Virus record (IMG/VR): IMGVR_UViG_3300009152_000198
Location: 1-24,568 of that record
DNA: 24,568 nt
From: a virus
Reading direction: 5' to 3' (one strand)
Shown: positions 758 to 19,739 of the stretch, piece by piece
How the letters are laid out: the number at the start of each line of letters is the position of its first letter
Numbering within the stretch: the first letter of the stretch is position 1
Program-made: the position numbers and the translations under genes
Notes under the pieces: model-generated
The model's input: only the letters and a program-made list of their open reading frames with translations
Told to the model about the DNA's origin: nothing
Database searches by the model: none

Positions 758-967
758 ATGGACGCACTGATCGACGCCAACCTGGAGCGAAGAGTCCAGG
801 AGCCAAACGAGTTGCTGATTCAACTCGAAGCATCCGCCATCCGGCTGACGTGGTCGCCGGAGGAGCGAGCCAGGCGGAATGCGTACCACAACAGTTGGAC
901 GCCGCCGGACGCACCGGAGTCGATCTTCGGCAAGCCCGACGGGAGGCAGCGGTTCAAGTCGCAGTGA
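758..967 (+). CDS. Small hypothetical early protein
   Basis: A 69-residue protein, acidic and helical at the N-terminus (MDALIDANLERRV) and polar after that. AAGGGA lies 7 nt before the ATG. Its TGA stop overlaps the GTG start of the next gene as GTGA, a layout that recurs throughout this operon and supports this frame over the longer overlapping frame that starts at 676. No family is recognised. It is the first gene of the early operon behind the 478-505 promoter. Confidence 0.55.
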   Translation: MDALIDANLERRVQEPNELLIQLEASAIRLTWSPEERARRNAYHNSWTPPDAPESIFGKPDGRQRFKSQ

Positions 968-1308
968 TCGCCGGCACCCTGCGGCAGCGGGCGGTCGATT
1001 CGATGGCGATGCAGTCTCGTCGTATGGCATTCAACGACGTGATCGACCTGTCGATCGACGAACGGATCGAGATTGGCGACGCCGAGGCACTCTTCGACGC
1101 CGTGGCCGAAGCGATGGAGCAGCTCGACAACCTGCAGAACGAGTTTTCTCTGACTCTGCATGTGGACGTGGCGACTCTGACTCGCATTTCCGAGGTTCGC
1201 CGCCGCCAGGACGCCACCGGCCGCCAGTGGCGGGGATCGTCATGGACAAATCAGGAGACCGGCGCGACGGATCGTGCCGGGAAGGAGGCCGGCGGAGCCG
1301 GCCAGTGA
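964..1308 (+). CDS. Hypothetical early protein with acidic helical core
   Basis: Starting at GTG 964, which overlaps the previous stop, this gives a 114-residue protein. Residues about 18-60 are strongly acidic and predicted helical (DVIDLSIDERIEIGDAE, then an LFDAVAEAMEQLDNLQNEF stretch), followed by a beta-like segment and a Gly/Thr-rich tail. A longer frame from 676 exists, but its first 96 codons read as low-quality Arg-rich sequence antiphase to the preceding gene. No family is recognised. Confidence 0.55.
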   Translation: MIAGTLRQRAVDSMAMQSRRMAFNDVIDLSIDERIEIGDAEALFDAVAEAMEQLDNLQNEFSLTLHVDVATLTRISEVRRRQDATGRQWRGSSWTNQETGATDRAGKEAGGAGQ

Positions 1309-1344
1309 CAGGACGTTAGCCAGTGCGGCCACGGCCGGCCCGCT

Positions 1345-1361
1345 GGATGGAGGAATGGATG
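1345..1361 (+). promoter_or_regulatory. Cluster of GGA motifs over the csrA ribosome-binding site
   Basis: Four GGA triplets (1345-1347, 1349-1351, 1352-1354, 1357-1359) cover the Shine-Dalgarno and start codon of the csrA homologue. CsrA-family proteins bind GGA in RNA, often over ribosome-binding sites and often on their own mRNA. Autorepression is therefore a reasonable inference. It is not shown here. Confidence 0.4.
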
Positions 1362-1565
1362 CTTGTGCTAACGCGGCGTGAGGGTGAGTCGATCCGGATT
1401 GGTCGCGACATCGTCGTGACGATCACGGAAATGAGCCACCTGCACGGCAGGCCGCGGTGCCGTGTCGGCATCGAGGCACCCGAGGACGTGAACATCATCA
1501 GGACAGAACTGGAGCGCAAGGATGGCGATTCAAGCGATGGCTACGGCAGCCACAAGGGCAAGTAG
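1359..1565 (+). CDS. csrA: CsrA/RsmA-family translational regulator
   Basis: A 68-residue protein that opens with the family signature MLVLTRREGESIRIG and continues with a beta-strand pattern and the C-terminal IEAPEDVNIIRTEL helix start. The key RNA-binding arginines of E. coli CsrA correspond to R6 and R48 here; a short insertion near residues 26-33 lengthens the central loop. The Ser/Gly/Lys-rich tail is divergent. CsrA homodimers bind GGA motifs in mRNA leaders and block or stabilise translation. The start at ATG 1359 follows a strong GGAGGA. The next gene overlaps its 3' end by 44 nt. A csrA inside a phage early operon suggests control of host or phage mRNAs soon after infection. Confidence 0.9.
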   Translation: MLVLTRREGESIRIGRDIVVTITEMSHLHGRPRCRVGIEAPEDVNIIRTELERKDGDSSDGYGSHKGK

Positions 1566-1746
1566 GGGCCATGTATCGGCGAGGGAGGCGACGCTGTCAC
1601 GGGTCCACCGTGCTGCGTCACTGCTTCTCACGTCGATGGAACGGCTCCACGGCCAGACCTACAGAGCAAACCCGGGTGACGTGTTGTTTCTCCGCCAGGC
1701 GGTGGAGGCGGCATCCGCGGAAATCCGCAGGGAGTGCGTGCGATGA
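1522..1746 (+). CDS. Small hypothetical protein coupled to the Sak4-like gene
   Basis: A 74-residue frame overlapping the csrA tail. An alternative ATG lies at 1537. The N-terminal 20 residues are low complexity; the C-terminal part (GDVLFLRQAVEAASAEIRRE) looks like a real amphipathic helix. Its TGA overlaps the next ATG as ATGA, matching the translational coupling seen elsewhere. The start is uncertain and no family is recognised. Confidence 0.5.
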   Translation: MAIQAMATAATRASRGHVSAREATLSRVHRAASLLLTSMERLHGQTYRANPGDVLFLRQAVEAASAEIRRECVR

Positions 1747-2648
1747 GTCTGAAAATCACGAAGGGTATCAGGGTTCGGGCGAAGAGGATCGTCGTTTACG
1801 GCGTCGAGTCGATCGGCAAGAGCACGTTGGCATCGCAGATGCCGAATCCGCTGGTGCTCGATACCGAGGACGGGACCAACAACATCGACGTTTGCCGGTC
1901 GGCGGTGGACACCTTCATGCAGCTTGAAGGCGACCTGCACGCCCTCGCGAGGGATTGCCAAGGCTTTCAGACGATCGTGATTGACACGATCGACAAGGCA
2001 GAGCGGCAGATGATCGACCACATGCTCCGCAAGGACCAGAAACGGTCGATCGAGGACTACGGCTTCGGCAAGGGCTACACGATGGTGTCGGAGGCTATGG
2101 GCCGACTCCTTTCCGTATGCGACACGCTCATCGACCGCGGTTTGAACGTAGTTCTCATCGCCCACTCCAAGGTGGCGAGGACGAACCCGCCGGATCTAGA
2201 CGAGGGATACGACCGCTACGAACTCAAGCTCACGAAGCAGTCGGCTCCGCTGGTGAAGGAATGGGCTGACTGCCTTCTTTTCGCCAACTACAAGACCCGG
2301 TTGGTGGAGGGCGACGACGGTCGCACCCGGGCCCGCGGCGGGAAGGAGCGGGTTCTGCACACCGAGCGGACGGCAGCGTGGGACGCCAAGAACCGTTTCG
2401 GCCTGCCGGCTGAGTTGCCGATGACGGCCGAGGCTCTCGCCCCGCTGTTTTCCGGCGTGACGCCGACCAAGCCAGGCTGGGGCGATCGCGTCAAGGCCGC
2501 GGCGTCTCTGGAAGACCTGGATGCGATCGAGACCGGCGCCAACCAGGCGGTCACGTCCGGCGACCTGACCGAGAGCCAGCGGAACACGCTTGGGGCGGCC
2601 ATCGCCAAGCGTCGTGCAGCCCTATCGCCCGAGGAGGTGCACGCATGA
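1743..2648 (+). CDS. Sak4-like RecA-fold ATPase (phage single-strand annealing / recombination)
   Basis: A 301-residue protein of the AAA_24 / phage nucleotide-binding type. The Walker A motif is GVESIGKS (residues 20-27), Walker B is TIVID (77-81), and a VLIAHSK segment holds a His near 141 in the position of the RecA sensor. The C-terminal 60 residues are a helical Ala-rich extension. Sak4-like proteins are RecA-core-only phage recombinases that anneal ssDNA together with a phage SSB, and an SSB-like gene lies two genes downstream. The ATG at 1743 overlaps the upstream stop; the frame extends to 1734 but the upstream GTG is less likely. Confidence 0.85.
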   Translation: MSLKITKGIRVRAKRIVVYGVESIGKSTLASQMPNPLVLDTEDGTNNIDVCRSAVDTFMQLEGDLHALARDCQGFQTIVIDTIDKAERQMIDHMLRKDQKRSIEDYGFGKGYTMVSEAMGRLLSVCDTLIDRGLNVVLIAHSKVARTNPPDLDEGYDRYELKLTKQSAPLVKEWADCLLFANYKTRLVEGDDGRTRARGGKERVLHTERTAAWDAKNRFGLPAELPMTAEALAPLFSGVTPTKPGWGDRVKAAASLEDLDAIETGANQAVTSGDLTESQRNTLGAAIAKRRAALSPEEVHA

Positions 2649-3745: not shown

Positions 3746-4888
3746 ATGATGATGCTGGACTTTATTTCAGAGTGGTGCGACCGACTCAAGCGGATGCCTC
3801 TCGCCCAGCAGGTCGAGGAGCTAAACGCCGCCAGGCGGATGATGCACGACGCCGGGCCGTTCAGCCGGGAGCCGGTGGACTGCATCGAGTGGGTTCACAC
3901 CGACGGGATTACGGCTAACGACTACAACCCCAACAGCGTCGCTCCGCCGGAGATGGAGCTATTGAAGCTGTCGATCCTTGAAGACGGCTACACCCAGCCG
4001 ATCGTCTCGTGGAGCAAGGACGGCGTGCGTGAGGTTGTGGACGGATTCCACCGCAACCGCGTTGGACGCGAGTGCATGGAGGTACGGCAGCGGATTCGCG
4101 GCTACCTTCCGCTCACGACGATTAACACGGATCGCCAGGATCGCGGCGACCGGATCGCCTCCACGATTCGCCACAACCGTGCCCGCGGCAAGCACGCCGT
4201 CACGGCCATGAGCGACATCGTGATTGAGTTGAAGCGTCGGAACTGGTCGGACGAGAAGATCGCCCGCGAACTGGGCATGGATCAAGACGAGATTCTGCGG
4301 CTTTGCCAGATCAGCGGGCTGGCTGAGTTGTTCACCGACCAAGAGTTCTCAAAGTCGTGGGACGTTGAAGGATCGGTGACTGAGGCAGATTTCGCGGAAC
4401 TCACCGACGACGTTAAGAGTTACGGGGAGTCGGAGACGGCTGGATTTCGCACTGTCAACACGTCGGACGACGGACGAATCTTTCACACCTTCGACAAGTG
4501 GGAGTGCCATCAGGCCGGCTTCTATGCCACCACTAAGGACGGCATGAACAAGGCTCAGTGCGAAGAGGCTATGCGAGCGTTGCTCGCTGACATTCCGGCA
4601 TTCCGCAAGGCTCTCCGCGGTGTCGTGAACGAGTGGAAGCACAGTTGCGAGCACTACCTGACCAATAACGCGATGAACCGGATCGCGTGGCTGGGGCAGG
4701 CCGCGACGTGCTACGCCCTAGGGATCCCGTCCGTGTACCGCGGCGGCTTCTATCTGCTCACGGAGCAGCAGCAGCAGGAAGCCAACAAGTCCGCACTCGC
4801 GGCACTCAATAAGTGGCTCAAGGCCAGCGGCAGAAAGCCGGTGCGGATGGATGAAGCCGCACCAGACCGAGAGATGGAGATTTACTGA
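3746..4888 (+). CDS. ParB/sulfiredoxin-fold protein, IbrB-like
   Basis: A 380-residue protein. Residues about 45-130 carry a ParB-type domain, with a PPEMELLKLSILEDGYTQPIV-like start and the VVDGFHRNRVGRE motif. A helix-turn-helix-like segment follows (WSDEKIARELGMDQDEILRL). The C-terminal 150 residues are alpha-rich and unassigned. ParB-fold proteins of this sort are encoded directly upstream of a PAPS-reductase-like partner in the E. coli ibrB-ibrA pair, and the same order and a TGATG overlap are seen here. ParB folds bind CTP or ATP and can act on DNA or proteins; the substrate of this pair is not known to me. Confidence 0.75.
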   Translation: MMMLDFISEWCDRLKRMPLAQQVEELNAARRMMHDAGPFSREPVDCIEWVHTDGITANDYNPNSVAPPEMELLKLSILEDGYTQPIVSWSKDGVREVVDGFHRNRVGRECMEVRQRIRGYLPLTTINTDRQDRGDRIASTIRHNRARGKHAVTAMSDIVIELKRRNWSDEKIARELGMDQDEILRLCQISGLAELFTDQEFSKSWDVEGSVTEADFAELTDDVKSYGESETAGFRTVNTSDDGRIFHTFDKWECHQAGFYATTKDGMNKAQCEEAMRALLADIPAFRKALRGVVNEWKHSCEHYLTNNAMNRIAWLGQAATCYALGIPSVYRGGFYLLTEQQQQEANKSALAALNKWLKASGRKPVRMDEAAPDREMEIY

Positions 4889-6168
4889 TGGGCGTCAAGC
4901 GATTCAACGACGTTGACGTGCTGACTGCGGCCCGACGCCGCATCTCGGAGACGTTCGACAACTTCCCGCGAATCTACGTCGCCTTTTCGGGCGGCAAGGA
5001 TTCAAGCGTGATGATGCACCTCGTTATGGATGAGGCGATCAAGCGTGGCCGCAAGGTTGCCGTGATGTTCATCGACTTTGAGGCCCAATATTCGGAGACG
5101 ATCACCCACGTTGACGAAATGTTTGCGATGTACCGGAACAACATCGACCCGCACTGGATTTGCATCCCGATGCTTCTTCGGAATGCAGTCACGAACTACG
5201 AGCCGCGGTGGACGTGCTGGGATGAAGAGAAGCAGGATGCCTGGATTCGCGAGAAGCCGCTCGGCTGCAAGACCGAGAAGGACTATCCGTTCGCCGTCCC
5301 AGGTATGGAGTTCGAGGAGTTCATCGTCCTCTTTGGTGAGTGGTACGGGCAGAATGAACTAACCGCAGGATTCATCGGCATCCGTGCCCAGGAAAGCCTC
5401 CACCGCTACTGTGCGATTGCGACCTGGGAGAAGCGTGGCAAGACGTTTGGCGGGCGGCGGTGGACGACGAACATCGTTGACCGAGTCTTCAACGTCTACC
5501 CGATCTACGACTGGCTCACCGAGGATATCTGGCGTTATCACGCCAAGCATTCGGACAAGCCGCACAACGGCATCTACGACCGGATGAATCAGGCCGGCGT
5601 CAAGCTGTCTCAGCAGCGGCTTTGCCAGCCGTTCGGTGACGACCAGCGTCGCGGATTGTGGCTGTACCACATTCTCGAGCCGCAGACGTGGTTCAAGCTG
5701 GTGGCCCGCGTCAATGGGGCCAACAGCGGATCGCTCTACATCGAGGAGCGTGGCAATATCAACGGCTACCACAAGATCACGAAGCCGGACGGTCACACCT
5801 GGCGGTCGTTCTGCAATCTGTTGCTACAGACGATGCCGGCAAAGACGCGATCTCACTACGTCGCACGGTTCAAGAAGTTCATTTGGGGATGGCACCAACG
5901 CGGCTACACGTCCATCCCGGAAGAGGCACCGCCGGAGTTGGAGGCCAAGTGCTGGGCACCTTCGTGGCGGCGGATGTGCAAGGTGCTGCTGCGAAACGAC
6001 TACTGGTGCAAGGGGCTAGGCCAAGCCCAACCGAAGTCGGAAGCCTACGGAACCTACATCCGCCTGCGTGACGCACGCAGGGCAGAGGCGAAGCGGCTGG
6101 AGTCGCAACGCCGCCAGCAAGAGAAGGCCCAGCGTCGGCTTTTCCACGACGAGGTGATTCATGGCTGA
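4888..6168 (+). CDS. PAPS-reductase-like PP-loop protein, IbrA-like (DUF3440 type)
   Basis: A 426-residue protein with the PP-loop ATP pyrophosphatase motif SGGKDSS at residues 34-40, an FIDFEAQY segment typical of PAPS-reductase-like enzymes, and a GIRAQESL motif. The long C-terminal region, rich in Trp and Tyr, resembles IbrA/DUF3440 proteins. PP-loop enzymes adenylate or transfer sulfur. Relatives include CysH and the DNA phosphorothioation enzyme DndC, but no cysteine desulfurase or DndDE/SspB partner is in the window. Coupling to the ParB-fold gene implies joint action. The tail is strongly basic and Gln-rich, suggesting nucleic-acid contact. Confidence 0.8.
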   Translation: MGVKRFNDVDVLTAARRRISETFDNFPRIYVAFSGGKDSSVMMHLVMDEAIKRGRKVAVMFIDFEAQYSETITHVDEMFAMYRNNIDPHWICIPMLLRNAVTNYEPRWTCWDEEKQDAWIREKPLGCKTEKDYPFAVPGMEFEEFIVLFGEWYGQNELTAGFIGIRAQESLHRYCAIATWEKRGKTFGGRRWTTNIVDRVFNVYPIYDWLTEDIWRYHAKHSDKPHNGIYDRMNQAGVKLSQQRLCQPFGDDQRRGLWLYHILEPQTWFKLVARVNGANSGSLYIEERGNINGYHKITKPDGHTWRSFCNLLLQTMPAKTRSHYVARFKKFIWGWHQRGYTSIPEEAPPELEAKCWAPSWRRMCKVLLRNDYWCKGLGQAQPKSEAYGTYIRLRDARRAEAKRLESQRRQQEKAQRRLFHDEVIHG

Positions 6169-13990: not shown

Positions 13991-14071
13991 AACACGGAAG
14001 ATCAACGGCGGCCACCAGAGGACTCACCATGACACATGACGTAGCAGGGCCGTCCGTTGCATCGGCTGGTT
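13991..14071. other. attC-like recombination site 4
   Basis: AAC 13991-13993; 6-nt spacer; GAT 14000-14002; CAACGG 14003-14008; CGGCC 14009-14013; 34-nt loop; GGCCG 14048-14052; bulged T14053; CCGTTG 14054-14059; bulged C14060; ATC 14061-14063; 5-nt spacer; GTT 14069-14071. The loop holds AGAGGA and the ATG (14029) of the HNH gene. Confidence 0.85.
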
Positions 14072-14502
14072 ATGCCGCGTTGCTTCGTGATCCTCGGTGG
14101 CAGCGTACGAGGCTTTGCATCATGGAGCGCGACGGCTTTTCGTGCGTCGCCTGCGGAGACGAGAGCACGACACTGTCGGTGCATCATTTGCGATACCGCG
14201 GGCTTCCGTGGGATGCGGACGACGCTGACCTTCAGACGCTGTGCGAGCCCTGCCACAAAGCGCTCGGTAAGCACAGCATGGGTGGCGTCTATTACGCATG
14301 GAACGAGATCGGGCCGGACGACTGGCGAGTGCTTGCGGTGTTCGAGTGGTGCCCCGTCTGCGGCAACAGTGAAGACGCAAGCCATAGCGGCGTGATCGTG
14401 TTTGGGTGCGGCCACTCGCTTTGGTGGCCATCGGAACGGCCGGGAATGCGTGTTCAGTGGCAGCAGACTTTCAACGGGTTTCCGGCTTTCTGTTTGGCAT
14501 AA
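14029..14502 (+). CDS. HNH endonuclease-like protein (cassette gene)
   Basis: A 157-residue protein. Residues 1-14 come from attC-like site 4; the cassette encodes YAALLRDPRW onward. An HNH fold is indicated by CVACG (39-43), the HH pair (52-53), and LCEPCHKA (71-78). A second zinc pair, CPVC (108-111) with CGH (127-129), makes a C-terminal ribbon. HNH proteins of this type nick or cut DNA. A Shine-Dalgarno (AGAGGA) sits in the attC loop. The TAA stop lies in the cassette-end motif GGCATAAC (14496-14503), complementary to the cassette start GTTATGCC (14069-14076). It could be a phage nuclease, a defence effector or a packaging accessory. Confidence 0.8.
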   Translation: MTHDVAGPSVASAGYAALLRDPRWQRTRLCIMERDGFSCVACGDESTTLSVHHLRYRGLPWDADDADLQTLCEPCHKALGKHSMGGVYYAWNEIGPDDWRVLAVFEWCPVCGNSEDASHSGVIVFGCGHSLWWPSERPGMRVQWQQTFNGFPAFCLA

Positions 14503-17859: not shown

Positions 17860-19739
17860 GCCGCCTTGAACTCAACGCCGACTTCAACCTGCTCGCCGCA
17901 GACGGCGAGGGCAGCGTCCCCACGTTTGAGATGACCGCCTACACCGGGGCCGCCATCCGGCAGGGGTGGAGTCGGACGCCGATCGTCGTGGACCTGGAAG
18001 GAATGTCGGCTGGCCAGACGACCCCAATCCTCTACGGCCACGGCAAGGAAATGCCGCTCCTTGACTCCGTGATCGGCAAGGGCTCGTCAACGAACGACGG
18101 CAAGCAGTTGATGCTGTCAGGCGACCTGATCGCCGGCGAGCCAGCGAGCGACAAGCTCATCCGGCTTGCCAAGGCCGGCGTCCCGCTCCAGGCGTCGATC
18201 GGTGCCGATGCCCTGTCGTTCGAGAACGTGCCCGCGGGCACGACCGTAACCGTCAACGGCCGCGATTTCGTCGGGCCGATCAGTGTTGCTCGCCGCACGA
18301 TGCTTCGTGAAGTGAGCGTGGTTCTGTTTGGTGCGGACGCCAATACGTCCGCGGCTATCGCCGCCGAGGCGAACGAGGTGTCACCCATGAGCGATCAGCT
18401 CAACGAGACGCCTGTCGATGCCGTCAAGGCATCGGCGGAAGACACGGCGAGCGTCGCCGTGGAGAAGACCCCGGCCATCCAGGCCAGCCAGCCGAAGCCG
18501 CTGACGGCCGAGGAAATCGCCAGCGTCGTCCGCGAGACGATCAAGGCGGAGCGGCTGCACGAAGTTCGTGCCAGCCGGCCCGCTGCCCCGGTTCCGACGG
18601 AGGCCGACATCCAGGCCCACCGCTCGACCGAGGCGAAGGTGGCGGAGGCCACCCTGTGCATCGTCGCCGGCCTGCAAAACCTGGAGAAGCACTTCGACGA
18701 GCGGACGCTGGAGGCCGCCGACAAGCGGCGTTCCGAGGCGGGCCTGCAGTCGCTTCTCCTTGACGCTGCCCGTGCGAACGGCTGGAAGGGACACGACCGC
18801 AAGGTGACGCATGGCAACGCGAAGGAAATCTTCGCCCATGCGTTCGGGCAGATTCAGGCCACGGGTTTCGCGACCCACAGCATCAGCAACGTGCTGGCCG
18901 CGACCTACGGCAAGTTCCTGCTCCAGGGTTTCAACGCCGTCGAGAACGTGTCGGATCAGATCTCGAACGTCCGCCCCGTGGCTGACTTCAAGACCGTGAC
19001 CGGCGTCCGCCTCAACGGTGGGTTCGTGTTTGAGGAGGTTGGCCCCAGCGGCGAGATCAAGTCGGCCGACGCGACCGACGAGACTCGCACCCTGCGGGCG
19101 AAGCTCTACGGGCGGCTCTCGTCCGTGTCGATGGTGGACATCGTGAACGACGACCTCGGTGCCCTGACCCAGGTGCCGGTGCGTCTCGGTCGTGGTGCGG
19201 CGATCAAGAAGAACATCGACTTCTGGACCGAGTTCCAGGCGTCGAACAGTTCGTACTACCAGGCGGCAACGCCGGCTGGTGGCAACGCCCTGGCGTTCGC
19301 TTCGCTCTCCACGGCGGCGATCGCATACCGGAAGCTCCTGGACACGGACGGCAACCTCCTTGGCATCACGCCCAGGATCCTGCTCGTTCCGCCCGACCTG
19401 GAGCTGACGGCTGCCCAGCTGATGACGCAATCCCTGCTCATGTCGTCAAGCCTCGGCTCGACCTCGAGCAAGGTTGTGGAGCCGACCGCGAACGTGCTCG
19501 CCGGCCGGTATCGGGTGGTTTCTTCGGCCTACCTGACCTCCACCTCGACGTGGTGGCTGATGGCCGATCCGAACGACCTCCCGGCGATGGAGGTGGCCTA
19601 CCTCAACGGTATGACCACCCCGGTTGTTCAGCAGGCCGATGCCGACTTCAACCAGCTCGGCATCCAGTTCCGCGGCTACTACGCCTACGGCGTGGCGAAG
19701 GCCGAGGCCCGCTCGACCTACCGCATGGCGACCTCGTGA
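17856..19739 (+). CDS. Fused prohead protease, scaffold and major capsid protein (Mu gpT-like)
   Basis: A 627-residue protein. Residues 1-175 look like a Mu/HK97-type prohead protease, with candidate catalytic H62 (YGHGKEM), S114 (LQASIGAD) and E152 (MLREVSVV). Residues about 178-290 are a helical Ala/Glu-rich scaffold-like region. From about 290 to the end is a Mu gpT-like capsid shell protein with LTAAQLMTQSLLMSSS and RGYYAYGVAK segments. Fusion of all three in one chain is unusual but known in some phages. An internal in-frame ATG (18387) with AGGTG upstream could express scaffold-capsid alone. Confidence 0.85.
   Translation: MSRLELNADFNLLAADGEGSVPTFEMTAYTGAAIRQGWSRTPIVVDLEGMSAGQTTPILYGHGKEMPLLDSVIGKGSSTNDGKQLMLSGDLIAGEPASDKLIRLAKAGVPLQASIGADALSFENVPAGTTVTVNGRDFVGPISVARRTMLREVSVVLFGADANTSAAIAAEANEVSPMSDQLNETPVDAVKASAEDTASVAVEKTPAIQASQPKPLTAEEIASVVRETIKAERLHEVRASRPAAPVPTEADIQAHRSTEAKVAEATLCIVAGLQNLEKHFDERTLEAADKRRSEAGLQSLLLDAARANGWKGHDRKVTHGNAKEIFAHAFGQIQATGFATHSISNVLAATYGKFLLQGFNAVENVSDQISNVRPVADFKTVTGVRLNGGFVFEEVGPSGEIKSADATDETRTLRAKLYGRLSSVSMVDIVNDDLGALTQVPVRLGRGAAIKKNIDFWTEFQASNSSYYQAATPAGGNALAFASLSTAAIAYRKLLDTDGNLLGITPRILLVPPDLELTAAQLMTQSLLMSSSLGSTSSKVVEPTANVLAGRYRVVSSAYLTSTSTWWLMADPNDLPAMEVAYLNGMTTPVVQQADADFNQLGIQFRGYYAYGVAKAEARSTYRMATS
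18374..18389 (+). promoter_or_regulatory. Internal ribosome-binding site and start inside the protease-capsid gene
   Basis: AGGTG lies shortly upstream of ATG 18387, in frame with the long gene, at the boundary between protease and scaffold (residue 178). In lambda, Nu3 scaffold is made from an internal start in gene C in the same way. Here it would yield a 450-residue scaffold-capsid product lacking the protease. Confidence 0.5.

What the first reader, a model, noticed from the sequence alone, without database searches (positions are those of the whole stretch)
1345..1565. Phage-encoded CsrA with GGA motifs over its own ribosome-binding site
The protein has the CsrA opening signature and both key RNA-binding arginines (R6, R48). 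Four GGA triplets overlap its Shine-Dalgarno and start, suggesting autoregulation. A CsrA in an early phage operon could reprogramme host translation or time phage gene expression. The lengthened central loop may alter binding.
Basis: partly seen in the sequence, partly recalled or inferred. Interest (0 to 1): 0.7.

Follow-up and report, generated by a model that had tools for sequence, protein, structure and literature searches.

The report
Phage CsrA behind CsrA-site RNA array
A phage carries its own copy of the bacterial RNA-binding regulator CsrA, and the RNA just ahead of the gene folds into a conserved row of hairpins that look like CsrA landing pads, so the protein probably switches off its own messenger RNA and perhaps the DNA-recombination operon behind it.

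Summary
The CsrA gene is real (window 1359-1565, 68 aa; Pfam CsrA E 8e-17; R6 and R48 present), and so are the four GGA triplets at 1345, 1349, 1352 and 1357. The four-GGA cluster itself is not conserved: relatives have 1-4. The conserved element is larger and starts further upstream (1253-1361). It has three hairpins: HP1 with the canonical CsrA hexaloop ACGGAU, HP2 with a GGA triloop, and HP3 with loop ACGGCC. GGA-bearing single strands separate them, and the Shine-Dalgarno GGAs follow. On 17 leaders 11 base pairs show compensatory changes; on 38 distinct leaders 17 of 23 do (0 of 500 shuffles reach this). Rfam has no match. A protein-blind DNA pattern for HP1-linker-HP2 found 42 loci in 2.9 million viral contigs; 41 carry csrA then a Sak4-like recombinase gene directly behind it, and the 42nd ends at a contig edge. 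In csrA-less relatives a similar GGA-hairpin array sits directly upstream of Sak4. Best reading: the leader of a phage csrA-Sak4 operon, repressed by CsrA through several sites including the ribosome-binding site. Binding and repression are inferred, not shown. Phage csrA genes and csrA autoregulation are known; this RNA element was not found described.

The parts
1359..1565 (+). csrA, 68 aa, ATG start; 4-aa insert in the beta3-beta4 loop; R6/R48 intact
1253..1361 (+). Leader array (covariance model R1 hit, 110.9 bits), ten GGA triplets
1259..1280 (+). HP1: 8-bp hairpin with hexaloop ACGGAU (1267-1272), the canonical CsrA site; lies in the 3' end of the upstream gene
1280..1286 (+). Linker GGAAGGA with two GGAs, pattern GGRANGGA conserved among relatives
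1287..1303 (+). HP2: 7-bp hairpin GGCCGGC-GGA-GCCGGCC, GGA in apical loop
1308..1313 (+). ACAGGA single-stranded site between HP2 and HP3; CAGGA invariant in the 17 aligned leaders
1320..1346 (+). HP3: hairpin with hexaloop ACGGCC (1331-1336); class consensus A-N-G-G-Y-N, one base off the CsrA consensus
1345..1359 (+). GGA cluster over the Shine-Dalgarno and start (GGA at 1345, 1349, 1352, 1357)
964..1308 (+). Upstream gene (114 aa, no PHROG match) whose 3' end carries HP1 and HP2
1522..1746 (+). Downstream overlapping small ORF (74 aa), conserved in the close family
1743..2648 (+). Sak4-like ssDNA-annealing ATPase (PF13479, PHROG 124), partner of csrA across the phage family

Best explanation
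This is a phage-encoded CsrA at the head of a csrA-Sak4 early operon. Its mRNA leader is a cis-acting, multi-site CsrA-binding element built like a short stretch of CsrB/RsmZ RNA: GGA in hairpin loops (HP1 ACGGAU, HP2), GGA in single-stranded linkers, and a final site over the Shine-Dalgarno. CsrA dimers are tethered by the high-affinity upstream hairpins and bridge to the SD GGAs, blocking 30S binding. Phage CsrA thereby limits its own synthesis and, through the overlapping downstream genes, perhaps that of the Sak4 operon. Host CsrA could occupy the same sites early in infection. Shown here: the gene, the intact RNA-binding residues, the covarying hairpins, and their conserved linkage to csrA-Sak4. 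Inferred: binding by the phage protein, repression, and any effect on operon timing.
For: PF02599 match over cut-off. R6 and R44-equivalent invariant in 48 of 48, and L4 and A36 in 47 of 48, distinct Sak4-linked phage CsrAs. ANGGAN hexaloop hairpins: 11 in 21 cluster-representative 150-nt leaders against 0.21 +/- 0.43 in dinucleotide shuffles, and against 63 in 2.02 Mb of control viral DNA, about 110-fold. GGA is the commonest central triplet of stable hexaloops in these leaders, 7 against at most 1 for any other. Covariation: 11 pairs with changes on both sides in 17 leaders and 17 of 23 in 38 distinct leaders, 0/500 shuffles as high, slid controls far lower. A DNA-only pattern gave 42 viral loci, 41 with csrA then Sak4 directly downstream and 1 truncated. 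E. coli csrA is translationally autorepressed through four leader sites, one over the SD (PMC7652899), and glgC uses a tethering hairpin plus SD site (same review).
Against: No binding or expression data. HP3, the hairpin nearest the SD, has GGY rather than GGA. HP1 and HP2 lie inside the upstream gene, where translating ribosomes may unfold them. The SD GGAs are partly explained by being a Shine-Dalgarno. The window leader's full-length folding energy is no better than shuffled sequence. In csrA-less relatives a similar array precedes Sak4, so phage CsrA is not needed for its presence.
Confidence: 0.68

Rival explanations
1. The array mainly senses or titrates HOST CsrA. It is a cis-embedded decoy or host-CsrA-controlled leader that times the recombination operon, and the phage csrA gene is a later addition between array and Sak4.
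For: csrA-less relatives (L222, L229-L238, L240, L241, L244) keep GGA-hairpin arrays directly upstream of Sak4 and have no csrA elsewhere in the held records. The architecture resembles CsrB/RsmZ.
Against: The HP1-linker-HP2 form seen in the window is always followed by csrA. The element sits in the leader of a coding gene, ends at its SD, and has no terminator of its own in the window. The held csrA-less records are fragments. The host is unknown and may lack CsrA.
Confidence: 0.18
2. CsrA acts positively: binding remodels the leader (HP3 or alternative pairings of HP2 with HP3 sequences) and exposes the SD or prevents premature termination.
For: Alternative HP2-HP3 pairing is the predicted minimum-energy fold in the window. 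In some relatives HP3 is followed by a U-run (L226 U7, L311 U6). CsrA activation of ymdA by opening a hairpin is known (PMC7652899).
Against: The alternative pairing is not seen in the folds of divergent relatives. The window has no U-run after HP3. Multiple GGA sites ending on the SD are the usual layout for repression.
Confidence: 0.1
3. The hairpins are by-products of coding constraint or of high G+C, and the GGAs are ordinary Shine-Dalgarno sequence.
For: HP1 and HP2 overlap the upstream coding region; G+C is about 70%; SDs contain GGA.
Against: Compensatory changes in all three stems; about 110-fold enrichment over control viral DNA of mixed G+C; indels in the HP3 region argue against coding there.
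Confidence: 0.03

Closest known systems
E. coli csrA autoregulatory leader (Yakhnin et al. 2011, as reviewed in PMC7652899)
   Same: csrA mRNA with several CsrA sites in the leader, one overlapping the SD; translational autorepression expected here by analogy
   Different: Phage gene; three covarying hairpins, two with GGA loops, conserved across a phage family; linked to Sak4; partly inside the upstream gene
CsrB / RsmZ decoy sRNAs
   Same: Repeated GGA in hairpin loops and single-stranded linkers
   Different: In cis in an mRNA leader, three hairpins only, no Rfam match, no independent terminator in the window
Phage and plasmid csrA genes (Sobrero & Valverde 2020, PMC7366521; phage JC1, PMC9144972; RsmQ of pQBR103, PMC9928087)
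   Same: CsrA homologue on a mobile element
   Different: Those accounts, in the passages read here, describe no leader element and no Sak4 linkage; this lineage is uncultured and has no close cultured relative
RsmE of Pseudomonas fluorescens (PDB 2JPP, 2MFC)
   Same: Best solved-structure match by sequence (E 8e-12) and best Foldseek hit (2MFC); contact residues conserved
   Different: 4-residue insert in the beta3-beta4 loop; Gly/Ser/Asp-rich C-terminus

Membership tests
CsrA/RsmA protein family | PF02599 domain over gathering score | tested here: met
   61.3 bits, cut-off 27
CsrA/RsmA protein family | RNA-contact residues L4, R6, V/I42, R44 (E. coli numbering) | tested here: met
   Present in the window protein; R6 and R44 invariant in 48/48 Sak4-linked relatives
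CsrA/RsmA protein family | CsrA fold | tested here: inconclusive
   Monomer model pLDDT 75, pTM 0.53; all 15 best Foldseek hits are CsrA/RsmA but E is 1e-3 or worse
CsrA/RsmA protein family | Homodimer that binds GGA RNA | not testable with these tools
   Needs biochemistry
Bacterial CsrA equivalog (TIGR00202) | NCBIfam curated cut-off 70.1 bits | tested here: not met
   46.7 bits: a divergent family member, not filed as the chromosomal equivalog
csrA autoregulatory leader (E. coli type) | Several GGA sites, at least one in a hairpin loop | tested here: met
   HP1 ACGGAU, HP2 GGA, linkers
csrA autoregulatory leader (E. coli type) | A site overlapping the SD | tested here: met
   GGA at 1349, 1352, 1357
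csrA autoregulatory leader (E. coli type) | CsrA represses its own translation | not testable with these tools
   Needs gel shift, toeprint, reporter
CsrB/RsmZ sRNA families | Match to a described Rfam family | tested here: not met
   No match at gathering score; only chance-level hits at E 0.87 or worse
CsrB/RsmZ sRNA families | Independent non-coding transcript | tested here: inconclusive
   Embedded between and within coding genes; no transcript data

The most novel reading that the evidence does not exclude
A phage family carries a heritable CsrA-responsive RNA array at the head of its recombination operon. Where csrA is present the phage runs its own closed Csr circuit; where it is absent the array reads the host's CsrA, so operon timing is tied to the host's metabolic state. 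In one subclass protein and RNA may have co-changed specificity (loop GGA to GGY in HP3).
Probability: 0.3. Interest if true: 0.8.

Novelty: new variant of a known kind. Interest (0 to 1): 0.6.

Why it matters
Phage and plasmid csrA genes are known but their role for phages is open; the 2020 survey says loss-of-function tests are needed (PMC7366521). Here a conserved RNA element predicts a concrete circuit: which RNA is bound, at which bases, and which operon (recombination) is controlled. It also gives a natural comparison between relatives with and without their own csrA. The element has no match in Rfam 15 and can be transcribed in vitro from the coordinates given.

Tried and rejected
The four-GGA SD cluster as the regulatory signal: variable among relatives. 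ACAGGA plus hairpin as a widespread free element: the loose pattern gave no csrA-linked hit outside the family, so those hits look like chance. Folding energy of the 78-nt leader: not better than shuffles, so structure rests on covariation. Array targets elsewhere in the window: only a weak model hit at 18078 (14.1 bits), not pursued. ACARGGA or ACAGGA enrichment in the window: none. Host: no close relative of the protein among 84,980 genomes under the peptide patterns used, and the terminase is about 27% identical to the best-matching cultured phages, so the host stays unknown. Phylogeny: 60 columns for 85 rows, many forks open; array-bearing CsrAs cluster (4 label changes, 27.6 in shuffles) but a single origin is not shown. 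Nearest cultured-phage csrA relatives have E about 0.01-0.4. One PHROGs call failed on wrong coordinates and was repeated.

Full report
OBSERVATION. The ORF 1359-1565 encodes a 68-aa CsrA-family protein. Its residues R6 and R48 align with R6 and R44 of E. coli CsrA; the best sequence match among solved structures is RsmE of P. fluorescens. A 4-residue insert lies in the beta3-beta4 loop. GGA triplets are at 1345, 1349, 1352 and 1357; no other putative window gene has four in the same span. The window is a 24.6-kb linear virus record with portal, terminase, head protease, resolvase, ParB-like and Sak4-like genes. The NCBIfam equivalog cut-off is not reached (46.7 against 70.1 bits), so this is a divergent family member.

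RELATIVES. Ten close relatives (66-100% identity) occur in viral contigs with the same neighbours. No close relative was found in the genome set. Fetching by the downstream Sak4 protein showed that 60 of the 80 best Sak4 loci carry a csrA-family ORF just upstream. Among 115 unrelated viral stretches used as a control, one has Sak4 and one a weak csrA-like ORF. Across 48 distinct Sak4-linked CsrAs the RNA-binding residues are essentially invariant.

THE RNA ELEMENT. Leaders of these csrA genes contain perfect hairpins with GGA in the apical loop. In the window they are HP1 1259-1280 (CCGGCGCG-ACGGAU-CGUGCCGG) and HP2 1287-1303 (GGCCGGC-GGA-GCCGGCC). Then come ACAGGA at 1308-1313, HP3 1320-1346 (loop ACGGCC) and the SD GGAs. 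Counting one leader per 60%-identity protein cluster, canonical ANGGAN hexaloops number 11 in 21 leaders against 0.21 in shuffles, and the density is about 110 times that of control viral DNA. On a 17-sequence alignment the three stems are 93% paired with 11 compensated pairs. On 38 distinct sequences fitted to the model, 96% are paired and 17 of 23 pairs are compensated; that alignment leans towards the structure by construction. Both exceed all 500 shuffles and all slid controls. Related sequences inflate such counts, so the variety of pair types (for example three types in HP3's outer stem) matters more than the shuffle count.

LINKAGE TEST. A DNA pattern covering only HP1's loop, the linker and HP2, with no protein information, was run over IMG/VR: 42 stretches. 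In 41, csrA follows directly and Sak4 about 300-550 nt after the pattern start; in L040 the contig ends 94 nt after the pattern start. Because the pattern is long, the hits share descent; the result shows tight linkage, not repeated invention.

VARIANTS. A second class (L225, L243, L251-L274, L276 and others) has one to four GGA hairpins upstream of csrA, with ANGGAN in the hairpin nearest the start. The window class has A-N-G-G-Y-N there: with its closing pairs (UCACGGCUGA in several relatives) this equals the Rsm/CsrA consensus as I recall it, (A/U)CANGGANG(U/A), except for A to Y in GGA. Whether these CsrAs accept GGY is unknown. In relatives without csrA, arrays of GGA-loop hairpins precede Sak4 itself, and no csrA was found in 18 such or related records, all fragments. 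In L216, L220, L242 and L245 the array precedes an unknown 175-178-aa ORF upstream of csrA (L245 by its model hit). So the array marks the head of the operon, whichever gene is first.

MECHANISM. E. coli csrA is autorepressed through four leader sites, one over the SD, and glgC is repressed by a dimer tethered to a hairpin and bridged to the SD (PMC7652899). The phage leader has the same ingredients. The favoured model is CsrA-mediated repression of csrA and possibly the coupled Sak4 operon. Shown: gene, residues, structure conservation, linkage. Inferred: binding, direction of regulation, role during infection.

NOVELTY. csrA in about 1% of phages was reported in 2020 (PMC7366521); phage JC1 carries one (PMC9144972); plasmid RsmQ regulates its host (PMC9928087). 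No paper in the searched library holds both 'Sak4' and 'carbon storage regulator', and Rfam 15 has no match. Subscription papers and preprints were not searchable. I file it as a new variant of a known kind.

Noticed in passing
L222, L223, L229-L238, L240, L241, L244 (just upstream of Sak4): csrA-less relatives keep a GGA-loop hairpin array directly upstream of the Sak4 gene.
   Followed up: partly
L226 125-232, L311 1963-2072, L254 2205-2311: HP3 is followed by a run of 5-7 U, terminator-like, unlike the window; possible attenuation in those relatives.
   Followed up: no
L069 (L004) 1836-2750 vs window 1743-2648: Sak4 is only 49% identical while both neighbours are 82-99% identical: gene swapping at Sak4 inside a constant module.
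   Followed up: no
L029 upstream of 3001: A csrA not linked to Sak4 also has a perfect hairpin with hexaloop ACGGAU about 70 nt upstream of its start.
   Followed up: no
L012 3001 and 4385: Two csrA-family genes within 1.4 kb on one viral contig.
   Followed up: no
window 4888-6168: PAPS reductase/DUF3440 gene; phage JC1 (PMC9144972) also carries both csrA and a PAPS reductase.
   Followed up: no
window 14029-14502: HNH endonuclease with a sub-threshold match to the IscB model (34 bits, cut-off 175).
   Followed up: no
L216, L220, L242, L245: Array lies upstream of an unknown 175-178-aa ORF that precedes csrA, rather than directly upstream of csrA.
   Followed up: partly
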